Made by a program: the position numbers and the translations under genes
Source: Salinicola peritrichatus
Lineage (GTDB): Bacteria; Pseudomonadota; Gammaproteobacteria; Pseudomonadales; Halomonadaceae
Length of the DNA stretch: 41,428 nucleotides
Assembly: GCF_003206715.1 (NCBI RefSeq)
Contig: NZ_PZJU01000030.1
Span: 10,151 to 51,578, forward strand
Reading direction: 5' to 3'
The notes under the pieces: generated by a model
What the model was told of the DNA's origin: nothing
Database searches by the model: none
Seen by the model: only the letters and a program-made list of their open reading frames with translations
Shown: positions 14,520 to 41,305 of the stretch, piece by piece
Layout: every line of letters starts with the position of its first letter
Position numbering within the stretch: position 1 is the first letter of the stretch

Positions 14520-16013
14520 ATGGCAATTTCCACCACGATCAAATCCATCCAGGACATCATGCGCAAGGACGTGGGCGTCGACGGCGATGCCCAGCGCATC
14601 GGCCAGTTGGTCTGGATGCTGTTTCTGAAGATCTTCGACGACCGCGAGCGGGAATGGGAGATGTTCAACGACGCTTACCGCTCCCCTATCCCCGAGCGGT
14701 TGCGCTGGCGCCATTGGGCAGCAGATGCCGAAGGCCCGACCGGCGACGAGCTCAAATCGTTCATCGACAACGAACTCTTCCCCGGCCTGCAGCAGTTGCA
14801 ACCCACGGGCGACGATGCCCGTGCCGTGGTCATCCGCAACGTGTTCGAAGACGCCTACAACTACATGAAATCCGGCCAGTTGCTACGGCAGGTGATCAAC
14901 AAGCTGCAGGATGGCATCGACTTCAACACCCAGGCCGACCGTCACCAGCTCGGCGACATGTACGAGCAGGTTCTCAAGGACCTGCAGAGCGCAGGTAACG
15001 CCGGTGAGTTTTACACGCCCCGCGCCGTGACCGAATTCATGGTCAATCGCGCCGACCCGAAGCTCATCGAGACCGTGCTGGACCCGGCCTGCGGCACCGG
15101 CGGCTTCCTCACCTGCGCCATCGAGCATAAGCGCACCCACTACGTCTCCACGCCGGATGACGAGCAGACACTCCAGCGCAGCATCTTCGGCTGGGAGAAA
15201 AAGCCTCTGCCGCACCTGCTGGCAACGACCAACATGATCCTTCACGGAATTGAGGTGCCCAGCCAGATCCGCCACGACAATACTCTGAATCGCCCGTATC
15301 GCGACTGGGGCCGCAGCGAAAGGGTCGACGTGATCGTTGCCAACCCACCCTTCGGCGGCACCGAGGAAGACGGCATCGAGAACAACTTCCCCGCCGAGCT
15401 TCGCACGCGCGAAACGGCGGATCTGTTCATGGCGCTGTTCATTCGTCTGCTGAAGGATGGCGGCCGCGCCGCCGTGGTGCTGCCGGACGGCTTTCTGTTC
15501 GGCGAGGGCATGAAGACGCGGCTCAAGGAACGGCTGCTGAGCGAGTGCAACCTGCACACCATCGTTCGCCTGCCCAACGGCGTGTTCAACCCTTACACCG
15601 GCATCAAGACCAACCTGCTGTTCTTCACCAAGGGCCAACCGACCGAAAACGTCTGGTACTACGAACACCCCTACCCCGAAGGCTACAAGAGCTATAGCAA
15701 GACCAAACCGATGAAGTTTGCCGAGTTCGCCACCGAGGTCGCGTGGTGGGGAGACGAACGTGACGGCTTTGCCAGCCGCGTCGAGACCGAACAGGCGTGG
15801 AAGGTCGGCATCGACGAGATCAAGGCGCGCCAGTACAACCTGGACATCAAGAACCCGCACCAGGCCGAACGGGTCAACCATGACCCGGACGAACTGCTGG
15901 CACAGTACGCTCAGCAGCAGATCGAGATTCAAAAAATCCGCGACCAGCTCAAGGGAATTCTCGGCGAAGCGCTGAACCGGAACGGCTCGGAAAACCCGGA
16001 GAGCCAGGCATGA
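14520..16013 (+). CDS. hsdM: Type I DNA methyltransferase subunit (HsdM)
   Basis: N6-adenine methyltransferase subunit of the type I complex, 497 residues. The N-terminal helical domain (1-150, starting with TTIKSIQDIMRKDV) precedes the SAM-binding domain with motif I DPACGTGGFL (Asp188) and catalytic motif IV NPPF (Asn275). It methylates the host recognition site together with HsdS and forms the restriction complex with HsdR. The ribosome site is weak (GGACAAAG) and partly abuts the T-run of the upstream hairpin, hinting that expression is held low or conditional. The stop overlaps the hsdS start by four bases (ATGA), so M and S are translationally coupled. Confidence 0.93.
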   Translation: MAISTTIKSIQDIMRKDVGVDGDAQRIGQLVWMLFLKIFDDREREWEMFNDAYRSPIPERLRWRHWAADAEGPTGDELKSFIDNELFPGLQQLQPTGDDARAVVIRNVFEDAYNYMKSGQLLRQVINKLQDGIDFNTQADRHQLGDMYEQVLKDLQSAGNAGEFYTPRAVTEFMVNRADPKLIETVLDPACGTGGFLTCAIEHKRTHYVSTPDDEQTLQRSIFGWEKKPLPHLLATTNMILHGIEVPSQIRHDNTLNRPYRDWGRSERVDVIVANPPFGGTEEDGIENNFPAELRTRETADLFMALFIRLLKDGGRAAVVLPDGFLFGEGMKTRLKERLLSECNLHTIVRLPNGVFNPYTGIKTNLLFFTKGQPTENVWYYEHPYPEGYKSYSKTKPMKFAEFATEVAWWGDERDGFASRVETEQAWKVGIDEIKARQYNLDIKNPHQAERVNHDPDELLAQYAQQQIEIQKIRDQLKGILGEALNRNGSENPESQA

Positions 16014-17779
16014 GTGTTCAGGAATTAATCACCGACCATCTTGATCTCTGGACCGGCGCCGTCACCCACAAGCGCAGCGCTGGAAGAGGCTTATCGGGAA
16101 AGAGCGGAAAAGTGGAACTGACTGGTATCAAGAAACTGCGCGAACTGATTCTGGAGCTGGCCGTGCGCGGCAAGCTGGTCGAGCAGGACCCGACCGATGA
16201 ACCCGCCAGCGTGTTACTGGAGAAGATCGCCGAGGAGAAGGCCCGGCTGGTCAAGGAAGGGAAGATCAAGAAATCAAAGAAGCTGCCAGGAATTGATGAG
16301 GAGGAGGTCATAACGGAGCTTCCAACAATATGGTCATGGGCTCGCCTTGGCGAAATCACAAACTATGGTGTAACTGACAAGGCTGAACCTGGCGAAGTTG
16401 AAGACACCTCATGGGTGCTTGAGCTAGAAGATATCGAAAAGGAAAGCTCACGACTTATCCAGCGAGTCACATACAAGGAACGACCTTTTAAAAGCTCAAA
16501 GAATAGGTTCCAACAGGATGACGTGCTATATGGAAAGCTGCGTCCATATCTCGACAAAGTTCTTGTTGCCGATAGGCCTGGCGTTTGCACAACTGAAATC
16601 ATACCAGTACGAGGCTTCTCAGGAATAACCTCTTCATATCTAAGGCTCTCATTGAAGTCACCTGCTTTCAAGATCTATGCGAATGATTCAACTCACGGCA
16701 TGAATCTACCCAGATTGGGTACTGACAAAGCGAGACTTGCCCTGATTCCTGTGCCCCCAACGGAGGAACAGAACCGCATCGTCGAAAAAGTCGACGAACT
16801 GTTGACCCTCTGCGACCGGCTGGAACAACAGATTGGCGATCAGTTGGAAGCTCACGAAGTGCTGGTCGATACCCTTCTCGATGCCCTCACCCGATCCGTC
16901 GACGCCGCGGAAGTGGCCGAGAATTGGGCCCGCCTTGCCGAGAATTTCGATACTCTTTTCACCACTGAAGCCAGCATCGACAAGCTCAAGCAGGCCATTC
17001 TGCAACTCGCGGTCATGGGGAAGTTGGTGGAGCAGGACCCGACCGACGAGCCGGCTAGCGCGTTGCTGGAAAAGATCGCTGATGAGAAGGCTCGTCTGGT
17101 CAAGGAAGGGAAGATTAAGAAGTCGAAGAAACCATGGGAAGTGGCAAAAGATAGGCTTACCCAACTTCCAGAAACTTGGAGGTGGGTAGCGCTTGGCGAG
17201 CTAGTGAGCATCATGGATGCCGGCTGGAGTCCTGCTTGCCCTCCAGAGCCTGCAGGAGAGAGTGAATGGGGAGTTCTGAAAACAACATCCGTTCAAGTAA
17301 TGAGCTACTTCCAACAAGAGAACAAGCGACTACCAGAAGGTAAGAAACCCAAGCGCCAATATGAGGTTAACAGCGGTGACATACTGATCACTCGCGCTGG
17401 CCCTAAGAACCGAGTCGGGATTTCATGTTGGGTAGACAAAACACGTCCAAGGCTGATGATCTCAGATAAAATTATCAGGTTTCATCTCATTGATGCTGCG
17501 ATGTCCGAGCCTTTCATTTGCCTCTGCCTCAATGCCGGCCTGACCAGTCAATGCCTAGAAAATGCCAAGTCAGGCATGGCTGAAAGCCAGATGAATATCT
17601 CACAAGACAAGCTAAAAGCAGCCCCAATCCCTTTATGTCCAGCAAATGAACAACACCGCATCGTCGCCAAAGTCGACGAGCTGATGGCCCTCTGCGACCG
17701 GCTCAAGGCTCGCCTGGCCGAGGCTGGCAAAACCTGCACTCGGCTGGCCGAGGCGGTGGTGGAAAAGGGGATTCATTGA
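16010..17779 (+). CDS. hsdS: Type I specificity subunit (HsdS)
   Basis: DNA-recognition subunit of 589 residues with two target recognition domains. Each TRD is preceded by a nearly identical conserved block: residues 40-91 and 323-374, both containing GKLVEQDPTDEPAS and EKARLVKEGKIKKSKK. Each TRD is followed by a helical spacer with KVDELxxLCDRL. The variable parts (about residues 92-260 and 375-540) are visibly richer in A+T than the conserved blocks and than hsdM, the usual mark of TRDs acquired by recombination. It is longer than the common 400-460 residues because of the N-terminal conserved extension. The stop overlaps the Abi gene start by one base, so all four genes may be one operon. 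The recognition site cannot be predicted. Confidence 0.92.
   Translation: MSVQELITDHLDLWTGAVTHKRSAGRGLSGKSGKVELTGIKKLRELILELAVRGKLVEQDPTDEPASVLLEKIAEEKARLVKEGKIKKSKKLPGIDEEEVITELPTIWSWARLGEITNYGVTDKAEPGEVEDTSWVLELEDIEKESSRLIQRVTYKERPFKSSKNRFQQDDVLYGKLRPYLDKVLVADRPGVCTTEIIPVRGFSGITSSYLRLSLKSPAFKIYANDSTHGMNLPRLGTDKARLALIPVPPTEEQNRIVEKVDELLTLCDRLEQQIGDQLEAHEVLVDTLLDALTRSVDAAEVAENWARLAENFDTLFTTEASIDKLKQAILQLAVMGKLVEQDPTDEPASALLEKIADEKARLVKEGKIKKSKKPWEVAKDRLTQLPETWRWVALGELVSIMDAGWSPACPPEPAGESEWGVLKTTSVQVMSYFQQENKRLPEGKKPKRQYEVNSGDILITRAGPKNRVGISCWVDKTRPRLMISDKIIRFHLIDAAMSEPFICLCLNAGLTSQCLENAKSGMAESQMNISQDKLKAAPIPLCPANEQHRIVAKVDELMALCDRLKARLAEAGKTCTRLAEAVVEKGIH
16127..16282 (+). repeat. Conserved block 1 of hsdS (internal direct repeat)
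   Basis: 156 bases encoding residues 40-91, matching the block at 16976-17131 in 45 or so of 52 codons at protein level and including the shared stretch CTGGTCAAGGAAGGGAAGAT. Such repeats allow recombination between the two halves of hsdS. Confidence 0.75.
16976..17131 (+). repeat. Conserved block 2 of hsdS (internal direct repeat)
   Basis: Second copy of the block at 16127-16282, in the same frame and orientation, encoding residues 323-374. It precedes the second target recognition domain. Confidence 0.75.
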
Positions 17780-18759
17780 TGGCGTATGATCGTCCGTGGC
17801 AGTCCTTCGAGCAGCAACTGGATCGCCTGAAGGCGCGCGGCATGACGGTTACTGACGATGCAGCTGCGCTCAGCTATCTGGAACGTATCGGCTACTACCG
17901 TCTTAGCGCCTACTGGTACCCCTTTCGCCGATTTGAGATCACACAAGATCCAGACACCGGGCGCCTGTCCAGCCAGGCCATGGACGAATTTCATCCCGAT
18001 ACCCAATTTGTGGATGCCGTCTCACTCTACCTGTTCGACAAGAAGCTGCGTCTGCTGTTGATCGATGCGCTGGAACGTATCGAGATTTCGCTGCGGGTGG
18101 ATATAGCCTATCTGCTAGGGAAGCGCAGCGCCTTCGCGCATATTGAAAACACCAAGGCTGATTTCCACCCCGGCTTCTCGAGCCGCTCTTTTCGTAACGG
18201 CGACCCAAGAACCCGTTTCGATGTCTGGCTGGAGAAATATCGTGGTTTGGTCGCGCGGTCCAAGGAGGACTTCGTTCGGCATTATCACAATCGACATGGC
18301 GATGAGCTGCCGATCTGGGTTGCCGTCGAAGTATTCGACTTTGGCGCCATTTCGCAGTTGATCAGCATGATGCACGTAGCGGATCAGACCACCATCGCTA
18401 CGCGATATGGCGTATCGGACTGGCGGGTCTTCGGTAGTTGGCTCTTTGGCCTGAGTTACCTGCGCAATCTGGTAGCTCACCACAGCAGACTCTGGAATCG
18501 CAACATCACAACCAAGCCGAAACTGCCTAAGCGTGGAGAAATCGATTGGTGTGATGCGTTTTTGACCGGCGATGACATGCGTGCCAAACCGTTCGTTCTG
18601 ATCGCGATCACTCGTATGCTGATCAAGGCGATCTGCCCGAATACGCAGTGGCACCAACGTTTGCAGGAACATCTCGACGCCTTCCCCGCTCAGCATTCAG
18701 CCAGACAACTGAAAGTGAAAAGCATGGGGATCCCGGAAAATTGGCGGGAATGGTGGTAG
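17779..18759 (+). CDS. Abi_2 family abortive-infection protein (AbiD/AbiF-like, HEPN)
   Basis: Predicted phage-defence protein of 326 residues of the Abi_2 family. The family signature YLERIGYYRLSAYWYPFR is near residue 40, and a HEPN-type RNase motif is visible as R229-N-x3-H234 in YLRNLVAHHSRLW. HEPN domains with R-x4-6-H are typically metal-independent RNases, and Abi_2/AbiF proteins are regarded as relatives of the HEPN part of Cas13. The ATG at 17779 shares one base with the hsdS stop, so it belongs to the restriction operon. Co-transcription would pair DNA restriction with an RNA-level, growth-arresting back-up. Whether it needs a partner RNA is not shown, but the next 148 bases are rich in hairpins. 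Confidence 0.85.
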   Translation: MAYDRPWQSFEQQLDRLKARGMTVTDDAAALSYLERIGYYRLSAYWYPFRRFEITQDPDTGRLSSQAMDEFHPDTQFVDAVSLYLFDKKLRLLLIDALERIEISLRVDIAYLLGKRSAFAHIENTKADFHPGFSSRSFRNGDPRTRFDVWLEKYRGLVARSKEDFVRHYHNRHGDELPIWVAVEVFDFGAISQLISMMHVADQTTIATRYGVSDWRVFGSWLFGLSYLRNLVAHHSRLWNRNITTKPKLPKRGEIDWCDAFLTGDDMRAKPFVLIAITRMLIKAICPNTQWHQRLQEHLDAFPAQHSARQLKVKSMGIPENWREWW

Positions 18760-18907
18760 CCGCCTATCACCAACCCAATCACGTTGGTTAAAACAAGAAC
18801 CCCAGCGTAGGTTGCAAGCAACCAAGAGGCCGGGGTCGTGTTGGCCTTAATATTAGGACACTGGCTTCATCGGTACAAGACTTACTTGTGGCTAAGGGAG
18901 AGATCAC
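18760..18907 (+). ncRNA. Candidate structured RNA downstream of the Abi gene
   Basis: Three hairpins in 148 bases. The first pairs ACCAAC (18769-18774) with GTTGGT (18783-18788). The second has outer arms ACCCC/GGGGT (18799-18803 and 18832-18836) around GGTTG/CAACC (18810-18814 and 18819-18823). The third pairs ACAAG with CTTGT (18875-18879 and 18885-18889). The CAACC and GGTTG elements of the first two can also pair across. AbiF-type HEPN proteins have been reported with adjacent structured RNAs. This may instead be an ordinary intergenic region with a leader for the next gene. Confidence 0.35.
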
Positions 18908-20026
18908 GTGGCGATCGAACAAGGCATCTGGAAGCTGGCCAACGGCGCCAGCGAACAGCCACAGCGGCTACGCCCAGCCGGGCTCGCCGACGAAGGGCTG
19001 CTGGAAGCACAAATCATGCAGGATGTCTCGATCCTTAACCGGGATTGGCTGCTGATCGGCCGGCAGGTGCGCACGGCCTTCGACAAGCTGATCGACCTGC
19101 TGGCGATCGATGCCAACGGCACGGTGATCATCATCGAACTCAAGCGGGACAAGACACCCAGAGAGGTCGTCGCCCAGACCATCGACTACGCCTCGTGGAT
19201 CGCGAGCCTGGGCGACAGCGACATCGTCGATATCTATCTTGATTTCGCCAAACGCTATTCATGCCCGCACGCGACGCTGGACGAGGCATTTCAGGCCAAG
19301 TTCGGTGTCGCGCTGTCGGACGTCCCGGTCAACGAACAGCATCAGATGGTAGTGGTCGCGACCAAACTGGATGCCAGCACCGAGCGCATCATTACCTATC
19401 TCAACGACTACGCGCAGATTTCCATCAACGCTCTGTTCTTCGCAGCTTTCGAGGATGGCGGCAACCGCTACCTGAGTCGCGCCTGGATGATCGACCCGGA
19501 CGAGAGCCAGGAACGCGCCATTACCAAAGGGCGCAAGGAGCCCTGGAACGGTGAATTCTACGCCTCGTTCGGTGACGATCGGCCATGGTCATTGGCAAGG
19601 CGGCTGGGCTTTATCGCTGGCGGCGGCGCCGCCTGGTACTCGAAGACGTTATCCATGCTCTCCGAGGGTGATCGGGTGTGGGTCAATATTCCCAAAACGG
19701 GCTATGTCGGCGTTGGTGTCGTGACCGGTGAACGCTGCCGGGCCGATGAATACCGGTTTGCGAATGAAGGCGACAGAACCTTGCCAGAGATCGTTTCCCA
19801 AGACGATGACCTCTCGCGCGAATCGTATCCGCATCTTTTTCAAACCCTGGCGGATGAAGAAGAAGCGGAATACCTCGTGCCCGTACGCTGGATTCATACG
19901 GTGGCGCGAAGCGAGGCGTTCAGCGAGGTCGGGCTATTCGGTAACCAGAACACCGTCTGCAAACCGACGGCACCGAAGTGGCAGCACACGATAGATCGGC
20001 TCGACAAGGTCTGGCCTGTTACCTGA
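18908..20026 (+). CDS. NucS-like PD-(D/E)XK nuclease-domain protein
   Basis: Cytoplasmic protein of 372 residues. Residues about 45-130 form an endonuclease NucS/DUF91-like PD-(D/E)XK core: FDKLIDLLAID followed by VIIIELKRDKTPREVVAQTIDYASWI, giving the Asp, the Glu-x-Lys and a downstream Gln-Thr-x2-Tyr helix. The C-terminal part has a beta-rich segment (DRVWVNIPKTGYVGVGVV). The start is GTG with AAGGGAGA seven bases upstream. It sits after the Abi gene in the same orientation and closes the island, so a defence role is likely but unproven. It could also act in DNA repair. The next gene, DUF3108, marks the return to ordinary chromosome. Confidence 0.75.
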   Translation: MAIEQGIWKLANGASEQPQRLRPAGLADEGLLEAQIMQDVSILNRDWLLIGRQVRTAFDKLIDLLAIDANGTVIIIELKRDKTPREVVAQTIDYASWIASLGDSDIVDIYLDFAKRYSCPHATLDEAFQAKFGVALSDVPVNEQHQMVVVATKLDASTERIITYLNDYAQISINALFFAAFEDGGNRYLSRAWMIDPDESQERAITKGRKEPWNGEFYASFGDDRPWSLARRLGFIAGGGAAWYSKTLSMLSEGDRVWVNIPKTGYVGVGVVTGERCRADEYRFANEGDRTLPEIVSQDDDLSRESYPHLFQTLADEEEAEYLVPVRWIHTVARSEAFSEVGLFGNQNTVCKPTAPKWQHTIDRLDKVWPVT

Positions 20027-35466: not shown

Positions 35467-35886
35467 ATGAAAGCCACAGTCAAATGGACCGACGGCCGCC
35501 AGTTCGTCACCGAATCCGGCAGCGGCCACAGCGTCGTGATCGACGGCAACCCCGACCACGGCGGCCGCAACACCGGCCCGCGGCCGATGGAAATGGTGCT
35601 GATGGGTCTCGGCGGCTGCACCTCCTTCGACGTGATCCAGATTCTCGAAAAGGCCCGCGCCGAGGTCACCGACTGCGTCGCCACCCTCGAAGCCGAACGC
35701 TTCGACGGCACGCCCAGCGTCTTCACCAAGATCCACGTCCACTTCACCGTCACCGGCAAGAACCTGAAGGACGCCCAGGTCAAACGCGCCGTCGACCTCT
35801 CCGCCGAGAAGTACTGCAGCGCCTCGCTGATGCTCAGCAAGGGCGGCGTCGAGATCACCCACTCCTACGAGATTGTCGTGGCTTAA
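35467..35886 (+). CDS. OsmC-family protein (YhfA-like)
   Basis: OsmC/Ohr-fold protein of 139 residues. Two conserved cysteines, Cys51 in GLGGCTSFDV and Cys117 in AEKYCSASLML, sit where the peroxide-reducing pair of the family lies; the GPRPMEMVLMGLGGC segment is typical of the YhfA branch. It may reduce organic peroxides, though YhfA-type members are not well characterised. The ATG has AAGGAA upstream. A tandem heptamer array begins at the base after the TAA stop. Confidence 0.88.
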   Translation: MKATVKWTDGRQFVTESGSGHSVVIDGNPDHGGRNTGPRPMEMVLMGLGGCTSFDVIQILEKARAEVTDCVATLEAERFDGTPSVFTKIHVHFTVTGKNLKDAQVKRAVDLSAEKYCSASLMLSKGGVEITHSYEIVVA

Positions 35887-35963
35887 GCCGCGAGCCGCGA
35901 GCCGCGAGCCGCGAGCCGCGAGCCGCGAGCCGCGAGCCGCGAGCCGCGAGCCGCGAGCCGCGA
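35887..35963. repeat. Tandem array of GCCGCGA, 11 copies
   Basis: Eleven perfect head-to-tail copies of a seven-base unit, starting immediately after the OsmC stop codon. There is no divergence between units, which suggests recent expansion by slippage. It lies 24 bases before a terminator hairpin, so it would be in the 3' untranslated part of the OsmC mRNA. Confidence 0.97.
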
Positions 35964-35987
35964 AAAGCAGACTCCTACCTTGAGCGA

Positions 35988-36134: not shown

Positions 36135-36151
36135 GCGACAGGATTTGTCGC
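36135..36151. promoter_or_regulatory. Inverted repeat operator upstream of the WYL gene
   Basis: GCGACA (36135-36140), five bases, TGTCGC (36146-36151). The same repeat, with the same spacing and flanking bases, occurs at 41289-41305. A possible extended -10 (TG-C-TAGCGT, 36159-36167) follows it, so bound protein would cover the promoter. Confidence 0.65.
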
Positions 36152-36203: not shown

Positions 36204-37241
36204 GTGTCACAAGCTAAAGATACCGTCGCCCGTCTGCTGATGTTGCTACGCCACATTCCGCGTGCGCCCGGCTATATCGCCACGACCACCTTGCTGGAAA
36301 AGTTGCGCAACCGTGGCTTTTCAGTCGACATGCGTACCGTGCAGCGCGACCTCAACCGGCTCTCCGGCCCGTTCTCGTTACTCTGCGACGACAGCATTAC
36401 TCCTTACCGCTGGAGCTTCACCAAGGATGCCCCGCTGGATCTGCGCGACATGGAGACGCCCACCGCGCTGGCGCTCTATCTCGCCGAAAGCCACCTGAAA
36501 TCGCTGCTACCACAAAGCGTGCTCGACCTGATGGCGCCGCAGTTTCGCCGGGCGCGCGACTACCTCGATGCTCTTGAAAAGAACGGCCTGGCCGACTGGG
36601 CGCGCCGGGTACGCACCAGGCCCAACGGCAAGGCGCTGTTACCGGCACAGGTGGATAGCGCCGTCTGGCAAGCCGTATCGACGGCACTGCTGGAACGCAA
36701 ATGCCTGAAAGTCAGCTACCTCAGCCGCAGCAAGGAAGCGCTCAAGGAACTGGTCATCCACCCCGACGGCTTCGTCTCCCGCCACTCCATCAGCTACCTG
36801 ATCGGCACCGTCAAAGGCTACGACGACCCGCGCCAATTCGCCCTGCACCGCATCCAATGGGCTGAATGCCTCGATACATCGGCGCAGGAGCACGGCACCT
36901 TCGATATCGACGAATTTCTGGACAGTGGATTCAACGCCCTCGCCCCGATAAAGGAAGTCGACTTGGTTGCCGATATCTCTCCACAGATAGTTTGGCTGCT
37001 AAGAGAAACCCCATTGAGCATTGAACAACGGCTGGAAGCCCTGCCAGACAGCGACTGGTATCGGCTGCACGCCAAGGTGCCGGACGATCAGGAAACCCTG
37101 TGGTGGGTGTTTGGGTTGAACAGCAATATTCGGGTGCATGAGCCGGTGGGTTGGGTGGAGGAGATTCGCACAAAGCTGGCATGGCTGAGCAGCCATTATT
37201 CATCTTCAACCTCTACCCATCATCACTCAGCGAGGCGATGA
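36204..37241 (+). CDS. WYL-domain transcriptional regulator (BrxR/CapW-like)
   Basis: Winged-helix plus WYL regulator of about 345 residues. The N-terminal part (LLMLLRHIPRAPGYIATTTLLEKLRNRGFSVDMRTVQRDLNRL) is the helix-turn-helix type seen in defence-associated WYL repressors. The WYL core follows with LKVSYLSR...KELVIHPDGFVSRHSISYLIGTV and LHRIQWAECL, and a WCX-like C-terminal extension ends the protein. WYL domains sense nucleic acid or small ligands, and relatives repress BREX, CBASS and similar systems until infection. The frame opens at ATG 36171, but GTG 36204 has AAAGG seven bases before it and fits a promoter at 36159-36167, whose transcript would begin after 36171. The SMI1 gene follows after one base. 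Confidence 0.85.
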   Translation: MSQAKDTVARLLMLLRHIPRAPGYIATTTLLEKLRNRGFSVDMRTVQRDLNRLSGPFSLLCDDSITPYRWSFTKDAPLDLRDMETPTALALYLAESHLKSLLPQSVLDLMAPQFRRARDYLDALEKNGLADWARRVRTRPNGKALLPAQVDSAVWQAVSTALLERKCLKVSYLSRSKEALKELVIHPDGFVSRHSISYLIGTVKGYDDPRQFALHRIQWAECLDTSAQEHGTFDIDEFLDSGFNALAPIKEVDLVADISPQIVWLLRETPLSIEQRLEALPDSDWYRLHAKVPDDQETLWWVFGLNSNIRVHEPVGWVEEIRTKLAWLSSHYSSSTSTHHHSARR

Positions 37242-37242
37242 C

Positions 37243-37752
37243 ATGAACGATCTATGGAAAAAACTGGAAGCCTGGTTGGCGGCCAACGATCCCCTCCGCT
37301 TAACCAATCTCAAGCAACCTGCTAGCGATACCGAACTGGACAAGCTTGAACAGACTCTTGGCCTGTCTTTGCCAGAAGACTTCAAGGAGTTCCTGAAAAT
37401 TCATAATGGACAGCCTGGTACTGGACCAAGCTTATTTGAGCAGGGACGTCTGCTCGGTACTACCGACATTCTCATCGAATGGCAAACCTGGAATGAATTG
37501 CTGCAATCAGGGGAGTTCGATGAAAACCATTCCACTCCTAGTGCGGAAATAAAAGCAGGCTGGTGGAGACCGGGATGGATGCCTTTCCTATCGAATGGAC
37601 GAGGCGATCATTTGTGCCTGGATATGGATCCATCAACATCCGGCACCCGTGGACAGGTGATTGAAGTCCTGCACGACTTCGAGTCACGGCAGCGATTGGC
37701 GACAGGACTTACAGAGTGGCTTGAAATGACGATCAAGAGAAACGAAGCATGA
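37243..37752 (+). CDS. SMI1/KNR4 (SUKH) family protein
   Basis: Protein of 169 residues with the SUKH fold: the N-terminal ASDTELDKLEQTLGLSLPEDFKEFLKIHNGQ motif is diagnostic, followed by WWRPGWMPFLSNGRGDHLCLDMDP. SUKH proteins are best known as immunity proteins that neutralise nuclease toxins of polymorphic toxin systems. It starts one base after the WYL stop and its own stop overlaps the next start by four bases, so it is co-translated with the split HNH gene. That pairing fits an immunity or control role, as inference. The gene is poorer in G+C than the core genes. Confidence 0.85.
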   Translation: MNDLWKKLEAWLAANDPLRLTNLKQPASDTELDKLEQTLGLSLPEDFKEFLKIHNGQPGTGPSLFEQGRLLGTTDILIEWQTWNELLQSGEFDENHSTPSAEIKAGWWRPGWMPFLSNGRGDHLCLDMDPSTSGTRGQVIEVLHDFESRQRLATGLTEWLEMTIKRNEA

Positions 37753-38090
37753 ATGATAAAACCACTACCACTCTCAGGGAACAGCGACTTCAGAAACTGT
37801 TCGACGACTGCCAGCAGCAGGTCATTTCTCAAATCATGGGGCCCTTCGGCTTGTCACCCGCCATGTTCAAGGACGTGGACAAAAACGGTGGAAATGTCAC
37901 TACGCTGCACAATTTTAGCCACGAGGATGACAATTATATCGCAACAGAGGACGACAGGATCCTCCACCAGCATGCGCATACGCAATATAGCAAAAAGGTG
38001 AGAGATAAATACGTAGTCGACGATTGGAGTGATAGGCGGGACAAGCGAATCGCAAGGTATCGACGAATACACCGGCTACAAAGTCGATAG
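37749..38090 (+). CDS. N-terminal fragment of the split HNH gene
   Basis: 113 codons starting at an ATG that overlaps the SMI1 stop (ATGA). The first about 98 residues (MNDKTTTTLREQRLQKLF... to DRRDKRIA) look like a genuine hydrophilic N-terminal domain with the segment GGNVTTLHNFSHEDDNYIATEDD. The last 15 residues (RYRRIHRLQSR) are basic, low in content and probably a frameshift tail. I do not recognise a family for this domain alone. Confidence 0.55.
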   Translation: MNDKTTTTLREQRLQKLFDDCQQQVISQIMGPFGLSPAMFKDVDKNGGNVTTLHNFSHEDDNYIATEDDRILHQHAHTQYSKKVRDKYVVDDWSDRRDKRIARYRRIHRLQSR

Positions 38091-38781
38091 CGACGGAAAG
38101 GTTCACATGCCGGATGGAAGCCTGAAGCCAGCAGAGCTTGACCATATTGACTCCATTAAAGCCATTCACAGTAATAAAAAAGTTCAACTAGGTGTTGGAA
38201 AAGTCAAGAATGGAGAGGTGGATGTCGAGGCTATCAGAAATATCATTAATGATGACAAAAATCTTTCTTTGACCAACAAACCTATCAATGCTTCCAAAGG
38301 GGAGCATGATCTAAAAGAGTGGCAGAATCGGGAAAGTACCAAAGGTGATGGCAGCACAAACGCCGAGCATTACGGCCTCGCCCCTGAAAGAAGTGATGAA
38401 AAGTACGAAACCACCCGTAAGCATATCGACAGTACGGCAAACCGGGAGCTGTTCAAGAAACAAGCGACTGAATTGCTTGCCACAGGCGGAAAGCAGGCTG
38501 CACTCATGGGGGCCCGCCAGGCCATGGGCGTACTGCTAACCGAGCTGGTCAATGCTCTATTCAATGAAGTGAAAGCGCTCATCCGTCACGGTATCGAAGC
38601 CGGAAAGAACCTGATCGACGAAATTGGCCAGCGCCTGAAACGTGTCGCAGAGCGAGTTGCCCATAAGGCGCCGGAAGCCCTTTCACAGATGATACAGGGT
38701 GGTGTCAGTGGGTTTGTCAGCAATCTGCTCACATTTCTAATCAATAACTTCTGTCCACCGCGAAACGGCTCGTTACCATGA
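38029..38781 (+). CDS. HNH-nuclease core fragment of the split gene
   Basis: Up to 250 codons from a GTG at 38029 with no usable ribosome site, which is why I treat it as the continuation of the previous frame. It has an HNH-type core: DEYTGYKVD, then LDHI (Asp38-His39), NLSLT (Asn78) and INASKG (Asn87, Lys90), the pattern of HNH nucleases that lack zinc cysteines. Residues about 150-245 are helical and increasingly hydrophobic (GVSGFVSNLLTFLINNF). The final CPPRNGSLP is probably out of the true frame. Confidence 0.6.
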   Translation: MIGGTSESQGIDEYTGYKVDSDGKVHMPDGSLKPAELDHIDSIKAIHSNKKVQLGVGKVKNGEVDVEAIRNIINDDKNLSLTNKPINASKGEHDLKEWQNRESTKGDGSTNAEHYGLAPERSDEKYETTRKHIDSTANRELFKKQATELLATGGKQAALMGARQAMGVLLTELVNALFNEVKALIRHGIEAGKNLIDEIGQRLKRVAERVAHKAPEALSQMIQGGVSGFVSNLLTFLINNFCPPRNGSLP

Positions 38782-39371
38782 TCCGCGAGGGGCTTCTCGG
38801 CCTATTCCGTGCGACCAAGATGCTCCTCTTTCCTCCCAAAAATATGACGAAGGAACAAGCTCTGCAGGAAGGCCTTAAGCTACTTGGCACTGTCATTATC
38901 AGTTCGGTTGGGATTCTACTCGAAGAAAGCGTCTCAGCCTTCATGGCCGCCGTGCCGTTTCTTAAGCCTTTCTCGGACCTGTTGACTCCTGTCTTGATCG
39001 GCATCATCAGTGGCCTACTGTCGGCTTTTCTTGCCTACCAGGTCGACTGCTGGTTCGACCGCAATCAACGCAAGGAACGCTTACTGGACGAACTGTCCTC
39101 CAGCGCCAAACAGCGGGCAGCATTTGCCACAGAACTGGCGACACTTTCTGAGTCTTCACTCGGCAATGTCGAACGCTACACTCAATCTATAGAATCGTAC
39201 CGCCAGACTAGCGCCTCCCTAGGGAACGCTGGCCGGAAATCATCCATGGCCCTTAACCATCTAAAAAATACCGTCTCCAGAACTCGACATCAGGTAGAAA
39301 AAAGCCAAAATATGACCGACTACATAAACGAAATCCAAGCAGAAATCGACGCTTTTCTCAACAAGCTATAA
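38778..39371 (+). CDS. Membrane and coiled-coil C-terminal fragment of the split gene
   Basis: 197 codons from an ATG that overlaps the previous stop (ATGA), so it might also be translated by re-initiation. Two membrane segments are visible (about residues 34-50 and 68-90, the latter LLTPVLIGIISGLLSAFLAYQV), followed by a hydrophilic, likely coiled-coil tail (about 95-197). The nine codons just before the ATG, in its frame, read sensibly as LSTAKRLVT, which supports a larger ancestral protein. Family not recognised. Confidence 0.65.
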   Translation: MIREGLLGLFRATKMLLFPPKNMTKEQALQEGLKLLGTVIISSVGILLEESVSAFMAAVPFLKPFSDLLTPVLIGIISGLLSAFLAYQVDCWFDRNQRKERLLDELSSSAKQRAAFATELATLSESSLGNVERYTQSIESYRQTSASLGNAGRKSSMALNHLKNTVSRTRHQVEKSQNMTDYINEIQAEIDAFLNKL

Positions 39372-39389
39372 TATGGCTTAAGGGCTTCC

Positions 39390-40538
39390 ATGAGCACTCA
39401 AGAACAGCAGATCGTCCAAGCATTCTCAAGTATCAACATACCCAACAGAATCTTTCGTGAAAGCAAAGTTAAAGAACTTATTCACGACATTAATACTGAA
39501 AGCAAAAATACGCAAAGTAAAAATCAGCGTTTGAAAAGGCTTCGCAAGGAAAAGTCAGATGGAAACTTTGTTAGCAATTGGTGGAATGGACAAGACGACA
39601 AAATCCAAGAAGCCCAGCTCGATCTTAGTGCTACTATCGGCAAATTGACCCAAAAATCATCCCAGCTACTCGTGGTCAACACTGCTATTTCCAAGGTGCT
39701 TAGCGATCAACAGAATCTCTTGCTACAACAGCAGGCTATGTTGAAGCAACAAGCGGATAAGTTGGAAAGCCAAAACCAGCAGATTCTTGACCAACAAATT
39801 CAATTGGGACAACAACAAGAAGCTATCAACGCAGCCAACAAAGGGCTCATGGAAGCCAAAGGATTGACACAGGAGCAGGCTCTACAACTGGTTGGATGTG
39901 TGAAGCGCGTAACCGAAGCCGAAGAACGCATGGACGCTGCCAATCAAGCACTTCGCGATGATATTGAGCAAAATCTGATCGAGGCCAGTAGGGAGTTCCA
40001 GGTACGTCTATCATCAGGTTTCGACGAGTTGCATCAGCAACAAAAGAAGAACGAAAAGATTCTCACTGATGCCTTCTCTACCCAATCAAAACATAATCAA
40101 AGTCAATTAGCACAATTTTCCGCTAGTAACGACGCCTTCCAGACAGAAATCACGCAGACATTGCAGCAGCAAAACGATTCTCTACAGGAGCGCACATTTC
40201 TTCAGAATGACCGAATTTCAAAACTTGCCGCCGAAAGCGGTGGATTCAAAATAGAAATGGAGCGGCAGCACCAAGCCTACACCCAGGCGACACAGGAACG
40301 GCTGGATACTCATGAGAGGAGCCTTCAACAACAGATGGAAGAGTTATCTACCACATTGCATACAGCTCTCAATATGCAAGTCGGGAATGTCAGCCTTGGC
40401 CTTGAGCAGCAACTGACTACCGTGACAACCAATAACAATAAGCGCCTCGGCAGGCAACGCCTCGCTATCGCAGGCACCGCTCTCTTGGCACTGGGCTCTC
40501 TAGGCCTGCAAGCCGCCATACATTGGGCACTTATTTGA
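39390..40538 (+). CDS. Gln-rich coiled-coil protein with C-terminal membrane anchor
   Basis: 382 residues. Residues about 75-345 are a long coiled coil, very rich in Gln (LLLQQQAMLKQQADKLESQNQ and similar). The last 26 residues (LAIAGTALLALGSLGLQAAIHWALI) form one membrane helix, so the protein is probably tail-anchored with its body in the cytoplasm. The DNA is clearly richer in A+T than the core genes. It starts 18 bases after the split gene and likely belongs to the same operon; a long membrane-tethered coiled coil next to a membrane-anchored nuclease suggests a shared complex. Function is unknown. Confidence 0.75.
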   Translation: MSTQEQQIVQAFSSINIPNRIFRESKVKELIHDINTESKNTQSKNQRLKRLRKEKSDGNFVSNWWNGQDDKIQEAQLDLSATIGKLTQKSSQLLVVNTAISKVLSDQQNLLLQQQAMLKQQADKLESQNQQILDQQIQLGQQQEAINAANKGLMEAKGLTQEQALQLVGCVKRVTEAEERMDAANQALRDDIEQNLIEASREFQVRLSSGFDELHQQQKKNEKILTDAFSTQSKHNQSQLAQFSASNDAFQTEITQTLQQQNDSLQERTFLQNDRISKLAAESGGFKIEMERQHQAYTQATQERLDTHERSLQQQMEELSTTLHTALNMQVGNVSLGLEQQLTTVTTNNNKRLGRQRLAIAGTALLALGSLGLQAAIHWALI

Positions 40539-40551
40539 TATTCCCCGCCTA

Positions 40552-41199
40552 TCAATCCACCACCGGATAACACGCATCGCCCCACAGGGCATGCGGGTTA
40601 TCCATCATCACCGTAATCACCAGCGGTACGAGCAGGCTCATGAGTTTGACGCAATCGCGTAGCTGATCCCGGTTGACGGCGCCATTCCAGGTGGCGCCGC
40701 CATGAATCAGTTGGTTGCGCAAGGTGTAGATGCGGTTGAAGACGACGCCGAGCAGTTCAGGCGTGTTGCCGCTGGCAAGTGCTTGGTGGGCGCGCTGCTT
40801 GCCCTCCGTGAAGCGCTTCTGCCATTCGGCTTCGTCGATTTTGCCACTGTGGAAATCCCAGAAACTCTGGAAGACGTAAGGGTTATCCAGCAGTACGCGA
40901 ATGGCTCCTGGAAATGTCTGCCAGATCAGATCACCCAAGCATTGGCTGGTGTCGAGATCGCAGAGTTTTTTCAAGAACTCCCTGAAAGTCGCCTGTTCGG
41001 AAAGGCGGTAGCGCTCATCGATTTCCGTGGCATAGGCGGCATTGAAGGCGATCCACAAGAAAATGAAACGCCCGTCGTCATCCTCGGCCTGTTCGGCGCG
41101 GTTGAGCCAGCTCAATGCACGATGCAATCGCAGGCTGAGATTCACGGGCTGGCTATCCCGTTCCTGGCGGTGGCGCTGTTTCAGGGTCGCGTGTTGCAT
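40552..41199 (-). CDS. HEPN-domain protein, putative RNase
   Basis: All-helical protein of 215 residues. The HEPN motif R161-N-x3-H166 (LRNQLIHGGATW) is intact, and the upstream FIFLWIAFNAAYA helix is typical of Apea-like HEPN proteins. Such proteins are often RNases in toxin-antitoxin or defence settings, but some are non-catalytic. The ATG at 41199 has AAGGAG seven bases upstream and is preferred to the ATG at 41214. It converges on the coiled-coil gene, 13 bases apart, and the inverted repeat at 41289 lies 90 bases upstream of its start. The DNA is GC-rich, unlike the neighbouring operon. Confidence 0.75.
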   Translation of the reverse strand: MQHATLKQRHRQERDSQPVNLSLRLHRALSWLNRAEQAEDDDGRFIFLWIAFNAAYATEIDERYRLSEQATFREFLKKLCDLDTSQCLGDLIWQTFPGAIRVLLDNPYVFQSFWDFHSGKIDEAEWQKRFTEGKQRAHQALASGNTPELLGVVFNRIYTLRNQLIHGGATWNGAVNRDQLRDCVKLMSLLVPLVITVMMDNPHALWGDACYPVVD

Positions 41200-41288
41200 G
41201 TGACGCTCCTTCACGAAGAGTCACACAACGATATCAAAGAATAGACGATCAGGCGGTTTTTCCGAGGATCGGAATGTCCCCGATTCAC

Positions 41289-41305
41289 GCGACACAGTTT
41301 GTCGC
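41289..41305. promoter_or_regulatory. Second copy of the GCGACA-N5-TGTCGC repeat
   Basis: GCGACA (41289-41294), five bases, TGTCGC (41300-41305). It agrees with the copy at 36135-36151 at 17 of 20 positions including flanks, differing only in the three central bases. It sits between the HEPN gene (minus) and a partial plus-strand gene, and is followed by a possible extended -10 (TG-G-CATAGT, 41313-41321). Confidence 0.65.

What the first reader, a model, noticed from the sequence alone, without database searches (positions are those of the whole stretch)
36204..40538. Candidate undescribed defence or conflict system: WYL + SUKH + membrane HNH + tail-anchored coiled coil
Genes are packed with gaps of 1 to 18 bases or four-base overlaps, and base composition drops sharply against both flanks, indicating transfer as a unit. 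The parts make sense together: a defence-type repressor, an immunity-fold protein, a nuclease attached to the membrane, and a long membrane-anchored coiled coil that could be a sensor or scaffold. I know of no named system with this exact set.
Basis: inference. Interest (0 to 1): 0.75.

Follow-up and report, generated by a model that had tools for sequence, protein, structure and literature searches.

The report
Broken copy of candidate phage-defence operon
A bacterial chromosome carries, behind a switch-like regulator gene, a foreign set of genes matching an already catalogued but untested candidate phage-defence system built around a membrane-held DNA-cutting protein, and here the gene for that protein is broken.

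Summary
The genes are there, but the system is not undescribed and this copy looks inactive. SUKH (37243-37752), membrane HNH and coiled coil (39390-40538) match all three parts of the PADLOC candidate PDC-M40; a library search for that name found no paper. The nuclease gene lies in three reading frames (37749-39371), whereas relatives have one intact ORF; 16 of 16 other window genes compared are unbroken. The same four genes, same order, recur in five Stutzerimonas-type loci. The WYL gene is separable, though: same-genus G077 keeps WYL and the gene after the operon, with other cargo between. A palindrome, GCGACA-N5-TGTCGC, stands before WYL and before the convergent HEPN-like gene; the genome has three copies, the third inside an ORF, and 17 of 27 WYL loci examined have it upstream, two with one mismatch. 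Best reading: an exchangeable WYL-controlled cassette in an island between osmC and coq7, now carrying a membrane-held nuclease that would cut phage DNA at entry, with SUKH as self-protection. Anatomy is shown; defence, immunity and repression are inferred.

The parts
36135..36151 (.). perfect palindrome GCGACA-N5-TGTCGC, proposed WYL operator, 52 bases before the likely GTG start at 36204
36204..37241 (+). WYL-WCX regulator (the ORF can be read from ATG 36171; the G077 relative starts at the equivalent of GTG 36204)
37243..37752 (+). SUKH (SMI1/KNR4) protein, PDC-M40A
   Evidence: SMI1_KNR4 1.2e-24; PDC-M40A 5.6e-64
37749..38090 (+). broken nuclease gene, piece 1: conserved N-terminal GPFGLS..GGNVTT.HN motif (PDC-M40B positions 2-105)
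38029..38781 (+). broken nuclease gene, piece 2: HNH motif region (PDC-M40B positions 106-339)
38778..39371 (+). broken nuclease gene, piece 3: two hydrophobic segments (PDC-M40B positions 349-546)
39390..40538 (+). coiled coil with C-terminal hydrophobic tail, PDC-M40C
   Evidence: 4.6e-111
40552..41214 (-). convergent HEPN-like gene (RNQLIHG stretch, motif recalled; Pfam HEPN only below cut-off), the right neighbour of the cargo in G000 and G077
41289..41305 (.). second perfect palindrome GCGACA-N5-TGTCGC, 74 bases before the HEPN-like gene's start

Best explanation
The stretch is a WYL-headed defence cassette inside an island between osmC and coq7. Its present cargo is a copy of the PADLOC candidate system PDC-M40: a SUKH protein, a membrane HNH nuclease and a tail-anchored coiled coil. 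Proposed working of an intact copy: (1) the WYL repressor sits on the palindrome before its own gene and on the one before the HEPN-like gene, keeping both transcription units low until a signal lifts it (sites shown, binding and repression inferred). (2) The nuclease is held at the inner membrane by its C-terminal hydrophobic hairpin with the HNH domain in the cytoplasm (hydrophobic segments and HNH motif shown, topology inferred). (3) The coiled coil, anchored by its tail beside it, senses or gathers phage DNA or the injection apparatus (inferred). (4) The nuclease cuts incoming phage DNA at the membrane, as SNIPE does with a different nuclease domain (inferred by analogy). (5) SUKH binds the nuclease and protects the host chromosome (inferred from the SUKH family). 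In this strain the nuclease gene is split into three frames, so this copy is probably dead, while WYL, SUKH and coiled coil remain readable.
For: PADLOC matches for all three cargo proteins. Complete SUKH-nuclease-coiled coil in 9 of 12 loci from one scan of named genomes: five Stutzerimonas-type (four near copies, the fifth's nuclease 98% identical), P. kuykendallii, Pseudomonas Kh13, Kosakonia, Paraburkholderia; also in the one Klebsiella plasmid read in full. WYL-SUKH-nuclease-coiled coil in that order in the five Stutzerimonas-type loci. Empty site: osmC next to coq7 in 15 of 18 genomes of the genus, one unresolved, two with an island. Other cargo between WYL and the HEPN-like gene in G077. 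Palindrome: 2 in the window against 0 in 100 shuffles; 3 places in the whole genome, reversed control 0; perfect within 400 bases before 10 of 27 WYL genes examined, one mismatch before 2 more, perfect 0.7-0.95 kb before 5 more. HNH core D-H, N, N, K invariant in 12 aligned rows, the window included. Two hydrophobic segments in the nuclease, one in the coiled-coil tail. SNIPE as analogue (PMC13190303, passages). SUKH as immunity to HNH-fold toxins (PMC3482391, passages). Half-sites 5 bases apart for Acinetobacter BrxR (PMC9122589, passages).
Against: No experiment. HNH rests on a motif: no Pfam model over cut-off and the best PDB profile match, 7p9k, is only E=0.24. The predicted structure of an intact relative is useless (mean pLDDT 42). 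SUKH is absent from the Shewanella, Providencia, E. coli plasmid and four same-family relatives that keep nuclease and coiled coil, so it is not needed in every version, and it marks a single clade. The palindrome is missing (two or more mismatches) before 10 of 27 WYL genes, including both Stutzerimonas loci tested and Paraburkholderia; three same-genus genomes without the island still hold 0, 1 and 2 copies by chance, with 0-1 control matches. A promoter scan found nothing at either palindrome. PADLOC matched 3 of 10 flanking proteins tested in 5 relatives' loci: two type I restriction-type proteins beside L063, and one in L060 that matches only the ATPase/HTH part of a regulator model and is probably not defence. 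PADLOC lists PDC-M40 as a candidate only.
Confidence: 0.55

Rival explanations
1. Toxin-immunity or abortive-infection module: the HNH protein cuts host DNA when released from SUKH, killing the infected cell, rather than cutting phage DNA at entry.
For: SUKH proteins are listed as immunity to HNH-fold toxins (PMC3482391 passages). The nuclease is also found in pieces in P. aeruginosa plasmid pF022 and truncated in K. pneumoniae pER18167, as a costly gene might be.
Against: Pfam shows no secretion, repeat or leader domain in the window pieces or in 10 intact relatives. Nuclease and coiled coil persist without SUKH in several lineages.
Confidence: 0.3
2. The four genes form one fixed system in which WYL is an integral part that moved together with the rest.
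For: Same order in five Stutzerimonas-type loci, with WYL 63-65% and nuclease pieces 58-72% identical to the window's.
Against: The WYL gene with other cargo in G077 (82%) and G097 (69%, followed by a GTPase-like ORF). M40 with no adjacent WYL relative in P. kuykendallii, Kh13, Kosakonia and the Klebsiella plasmid read. Composition edge after WYL.
Confidence: 0.1
3. The three-frame nuclease is a sequencing or assembly error and the copy is intact and active.
For: All three pieces keep protein-like conservation (aa identity 0.64, 0.65, 0.72; most changes at third positions). The assembly is in 109 contigs.
Against: 16 of 16 other window genes compared with G077 are single unbroken frames, so errors are not frequent, and two would be needed in one 1.6-kb gene.
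Confidence: 0.2
4. A programmed frameshift joins the three pieces.
For: The pieces overlap, and the first and third share a frame.
Against: No intact relative examined shares the arrangement: the 18 put in the tree are single ORFs (they were chosen as ORFs). Two opposite shifts would be needed.
Confidence: 0.03

Closest known systems
PADLOC PDC-M40 (phage defence candidate; models PDLC04629, PDLC04630, PDLC04631-04634)
   Same: All three proteins in the same order; an intact relative scores 9.5e-280 on the nuclease model.
   Different: WYL head and paired palindromes have no counterpart among the three M40 models; the nuclease is broken in the window.
SNIPE (membrane-bound nuclease, PMC13190303, passages read)
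   Same: Works-like: a nuclease tied to the inner membrane, here proposed to cut DNA at entry.
   Different: SNIPE is one protein with an N-terminal membrane segment, DUF4041 and GIY-YIG. Here: HNH motif, C-terminal hydrophobic pair, separate coiled-coil and SUKH partners. No shared Pfam domain was found.
BrxR / CapW WYL repressors (PMC9122601, PMC9122589, PMC9122588, passages read)
   Same: WYL-domain regulator at the head of a defence locus with a palindrome before its gene; 5-base spacing and a second site in the island are reported for BrxR.
   Different: The half-site letters were not found in the text of these three papers (figures not held). Different cargo.
DUF262-family restriction enzyme of PDB 7p9k (BrxU, by recall)
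   Same: Weak similarity of the HNH region (E=0.24).
   Different: Not significant; no DUF262 part was found here, and membrane segments stand instead.
Polymorphic-toxin SUKH immunity pairs (PMC3482391, passages read)
   Same: SUKH next to an HNH-type nuclease.
   Different: No export or repeat domains by Pfam; the nuclease has membrane segments and is paired with a coiled coil.

Membership tests
PADLOC PDC-M40 | M40A SUKH protein | tested here: met
   PDLC04629 5.6e-64, positions 1-167 of 169
PADLOC PDC-M40 | M40B membrane HNH protein, present and intact | tested here: not met
   Present: three pieces cover model positions 2-105, 106-339, 349-546. Not intact: three frames. A member by descent, not a working one as sequenced.
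PADLOC PDC-M40 | M40C coiled coil | tested here: met
   PDLC04634 4.6e-111, residues 2-381
PADLOC PDC-M40 | adjacent genes in order A-B-C | tested here: met
   37243-40538; same order in relatives. PADLOC's own system rule was not read.
PADLOC PDC-M40 | anti-phage activity | not testable with these tools
   no paper found naming PDC-M40
BrxR-like WYL repressors | WYL and WCX domains | tested here: met
   Pfam 4.6e-12 and 7.8e-10; the N-terminal winged helix was not matched or tested further
BrxR-like WYL repressors | palindromic operator before own gene | tested here: met
   36135-36151; binding not tested
BrxR-like WYL repressors | represses the defence genes | not testable with these tools
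   needs an experiment
SNIPE | GIY-YIG nuclease and DUF4041 | tested here: not met
   no such Pfam match up to E=1 in window pieces or 10 intact relatives
SNIPE | membrane-anchored nuclease | tested here: inconclusive
   hydrophobic segments by hydropathy only
HNH nucleases | D-H, N, N pattern of the metal-site motif (pattern recalled) | tested here: met
   invariant in 12 of 12 aligned rows
HNH nucleases | profile match to a curated HNH family | tested here: not met
   GmrSD_C 0.067 and 0.083 in 2 of 10 relatives, below cut-off

The most novel reading that the evidence does not exclude
One WYL repressor with paired operators marks out an exchange slot: the regulator and the convergent HEPN-like gene stay while whole defence systems between them are replaced, here by a multi-protein, membrane-held nuclease that guards against DNA entry. 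A repressor already in place would let each incoming, potentially self-toxic system be tolerated on arrival.
Probability: 0.3. Interest if true: 0.65.

Novelty: new member of a known kind. Interest (0 to 1): 0.45.

Why it matters
If the reading holds, PDC-M40 becomes a testable multi-protein counterpart of membrane nucleases that cut phage DNA at entry. The palindrome also gives a DNA handle to find, by pattern search, which genes this WYL family controls. The G077 comparison points to a defence regulator kept while its cargo is swapped, which bears on how cells accept new, potentially toxic defence genes. The broken nuclease warns that calling this copy an active system would be wrong.

Tried and rejected
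Structure route: an AlphaFold model of an intact relative (8 rows) gave mean pLDDT 42, so no fold search was run. PDB profile searches: HNH region E=0.24 to 7p9k; the whole nuclease matched only a 'Circular tendon repeat protein' (5.7e-07, no stretch passing on its own) and the coiled coil mostly apolipoproteins; both were taken as generic helix matches. SUKH as partner of one HNH subtype: SUKH-positive nucleases form one clade (95/99), so co-variation could not be tested independently. Of the SUKH relatives outside the window, none of the five stretches read holds a nuclease relative, but the one in G739 lies at a contig end, so its neighbour is unseen. Search of the N-terminal motif for other fusions: 4 of 398 genomes (own included) and 16 plasmids, all at places already known as this nuclease family. 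Phage and viral collections: no match at the sensitivity used. Attachment-site reading of the palindromes: rejected because they also stand before WYL genes of other genera and the exact palindrome has no copy on the G043 or G055 osmC contigs. Promoter scan: fewer promoter-like sites than in shuffles (1 against 3.8) and none at the palindromes. Third genome site C74:3090 lies inside an ORF; G003 and one G055 site lie in similar ORFs, so it was set aside; the G097 site at C13 was not followed. Frame control: the 16 genes were picked by eye as the best-matching frame at each place, 79% identity or more; two lower-scoring frames with two matches each, overlapping these genes on the other strand, were dropped.
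Full report
What is in the sequence. On the + strand there are a WYL-WCX protein (likely start GTG 36204, end 37241), a SUKH protein (37243-37752), three overlapping ORFs (37749-38090, 38029-38781, 38778-39371) and a coiled coil with a hydrophobic tail (39390-40538); a convergent gene follows at 40552-41214. Pfam, PHROGs and NCBIfam give nothing useful for nuclease or coiled coil. PADLOC does: SUKH is PDC-M40A (5.6e-64), the three ORFs together are PDC-M40B (positions 2-105, 106-339, 349-546 of 547) and the coiled coil is PDC-M40C (4.6e-111). PDC is spelt out as phage defense candidate in PMC12548924 (passages). No paper in the library holds the term PDC-M40, and combined-term searches found no description of such a set (one search listed one BREX paper, of which passages were seen). 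That a preprint defined the PDC set is recalled, not seen.

The nuclease gene is broken. The 18 relatives used for the tree are single ORFs of 512-577 aa, among them a Klebsiella plasmid (L044), Stutzerimonas-type L054, P. kuykendallii L058, Pseudomonas Kh13 L060, Kosakonia L061, Paraburkholderia L062, Providencia L063 and Shewanella L064. In the window the frame changes near 38045 and again near 38750. The three pieces are 58%, 63% and 71% identical to the Stutzerimonas-type protein, with most differences at third codon positions, so the break is recent or an artefact. As a control, 16 genes of the window aligned to their same-genus G077 counterparts were all single frames (16 of 16; picked by eye as the best-matching frame at each place). 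Elsewhere too the gene is damaged: P. aeruginosa pF022 carries SUKH, nuclease and coiled-coil relatives in pieces, and K. pneumoniae pER18167 has a truncated nuclease between insertion sequences.

How common and how constant. M40B matches occur in 10 of 201 same-family genomes and 7 of 398 in the phylum sample, the own genome included in each. In plasmids 30 of 72,556 records match the middle piece and 14 the coiled coil. The variant of E. coli plasmid pGD27-31 occurs in 2 of 5,426 E. coli genomes (near-identical DNA only). No phage record or viral contig matched. One scan of named genomes returned 12 loci. SUKH-nuclease-coiled coil is complete in 9, cut at a contig end in 1 (L065), and lacks SUKH in 2 (L063, L064). 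The same WYL relative stands directly before SUKH in the five complete Stutzerimonas-type loci (one, L054, is labelled Pseudomonas sp.) and in L065; L062 has a distant WYL (31%) about 0.45 kb ahead; L058, L060 and L061 have no adjacent WYL relative. So nuclease plus coiled coil is the core, SUKH belongs to one clade (95/99, 6 of 18 rows; other parts of that tree are weak and hold long branches), and WYL is optional.

The insertion and the cargo swap. In 15 of 18 genomes of the genus osmC stands next to coq7 (in one of them, G134, the coq7 match is in several frames); one genome is unresolved at a contig end; the window's genome and G077 carry an island. OsmC is a Pfam match; the name coq7 is recalled from its sequence, and its place in the window's genome was not found. 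In G077 the DNA matches the window from osmC through most of the WYL gene (up to window 37166), then stops. A match resumes at 40552, 14 bases after the coiled coil's stop codon, with the HEPN-like gene (95% identical). Between them G077 has a GTPase-like ORF (by eye, no model run), then, across two contig ends whose link is inferred, a helical 328-aa protein and a 282-aa protein with a hydrophobic tail (both by eye), a HerA/DUF87 ATPase (7.7e-09), a WHH/colicin-type DNase (1e-12) and a DUF6985 protein (4.1e-07). Both cargoes thus include a predicted HNH-fold nuclease. WYL relatives at E 1e-60 or better occur in 54 of 240 same-family genomes but only 2 of 18 of the genus, ahead of various genes (23 of those 54 genomes read; the chain caller is crude and found few or no downstream genes for several loci). 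That WYL stayed and cargo changed is the simplest reading of two genomes; direction and timing are unknown.

An operator. A perfect palindrome, GCGACA-N5-TGTCGC, lies at 36135-36151, 52 bases before the WYL start, and again at 41289-41305, 74 bases before the HEPN-like gene. It is absent from 100 shuffles of the window. In the 4.6-Mb genome it occurs at three places, with no match to the reversed control; the third is inside an ORF. As background, three same-genus genomes without a known island at osmC hold 0 (G043), 2 (G055) and 1 (G003, site unresolved) copies, and control matches 1, 0 and 1. G077 has it before WYL and before the leftward nuclease-like gene (PDDEXK_9 8.9e-05, just under the Pfam cut-off) at the island's other end, with a third copy elsewhere. 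G287 (L028), a WYL-nuclease-coiled coil locus from another family of the class, has it before WYL and again 84 bases after the coiled coil. Of 27 WYL loci examined (two duplicate rows dropped), 10 have a perfect site within 400 bases upstream, 2 a one-mismatch site there, 5 a perfect site 0.7-0.95 kb upstream and 10 none. The last group includes both Stutzerimonas loci tested, whose best sites have two mismatches, and Paraburkholderia. Relatives share ancestry, so these are not independent counts. Acinetobacter BrxR half-sites are also 5 bases apart (PMC9122589), and the E. fergusonii BrxR island holds two boxes (PMC9122601). The half-site letters do not occur in the text of these papers or of PMC9122588.

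The nuclease and the mechanism. Aligned HNH regions of 12 proteins keep G, D-H, L, N, N and K, the window included. The best solved relative by profile is 7p9k, not significant (E=0.24); a weak PADLOC match to HEC-05 (2.9e-4) was not interpreted. An N-terminal signature, GPFGLS..M..D..GGNVTT.HN, is strongly conserved and was found in no other architecture. Two hydrophobic segments follow near residues 390-441 of L054; in the window they fall in the third piece, cut off from the HNH piece. The coiled-coil tail is hydrophobic in 4 of 5 proteins scanned, the E. coli plasmid one staying under the threshold. SNIPE gives the working analogue: anchored at the inner membrane, it cuts phage DNA during injection and becomes toxic without its membrane segment (PMC13190303, passages). 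SUKH proteins are catalogued as immunity to many HNH-fold toxins (PMC3482391, passages). From this I infer a membrane-held nuclease restrained by SUKH and helped by the coiled coil, expressed under WYL control. None of these working steps is shown here.

Verdict. A real, foreign, defence-type locus, already catalogued as a candidate, with its key gene broken in this strain. The new points are the different cargo behind the same WYL gene and the paired palindromes.

Noticed in passing
40552-41214 (-): HEPN-like gene (RNQLIHG stretch, Pfam HEPN models only at 0.1), beside different cargo in G000 and G077, with its own copy of the palindrome in the window; could be a second effector.
   Followed up: partly
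35883-35965: Heptamer tandem repeat (about GCCGCGA) between osmC and the WYL gene, seen in the printed sequence.
   Followed up: no
L080 3449-end and L098 12454-18665: G077 cargo in the same slot: GTPase-like ORF, helical protein, protein with hydrophobic tail, HerA-type ATPase, WHH DNase, DUF6985; PADLOC matched only the ATPase well.
   Followed up: partly
L048 8053-10661 (P. aeruginosa plasmid pF022): SUKH, nuclease and coiled-coil relatives all in pieces.
   Followed up: partly
L046 8722-11459 (E. coli plasmid pGD27-31): SUKH-less nuclease and coiled-coil pair between insertion sequences and near Tn7-like genes, on a plasmid annotated with mcr-1.
   Followed up: partly
L028 6525-10314: WYL-nuclease-coiled coil locus without SUKH, with one palindrome at each end.
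   Followed up: partly
15500-19000: Another stretch of lower GC (0.51-0.57) in the window with long ORFs; possible second acquired region.
   Followed up: no
L047 258-4725 (Paraclostridium plasmid): A nuclease relative in a Gram-positive, beside a gene annotated glycine zipper family and near one annotated Sau3AI-type restriction endonuclease.
   Followed up: no
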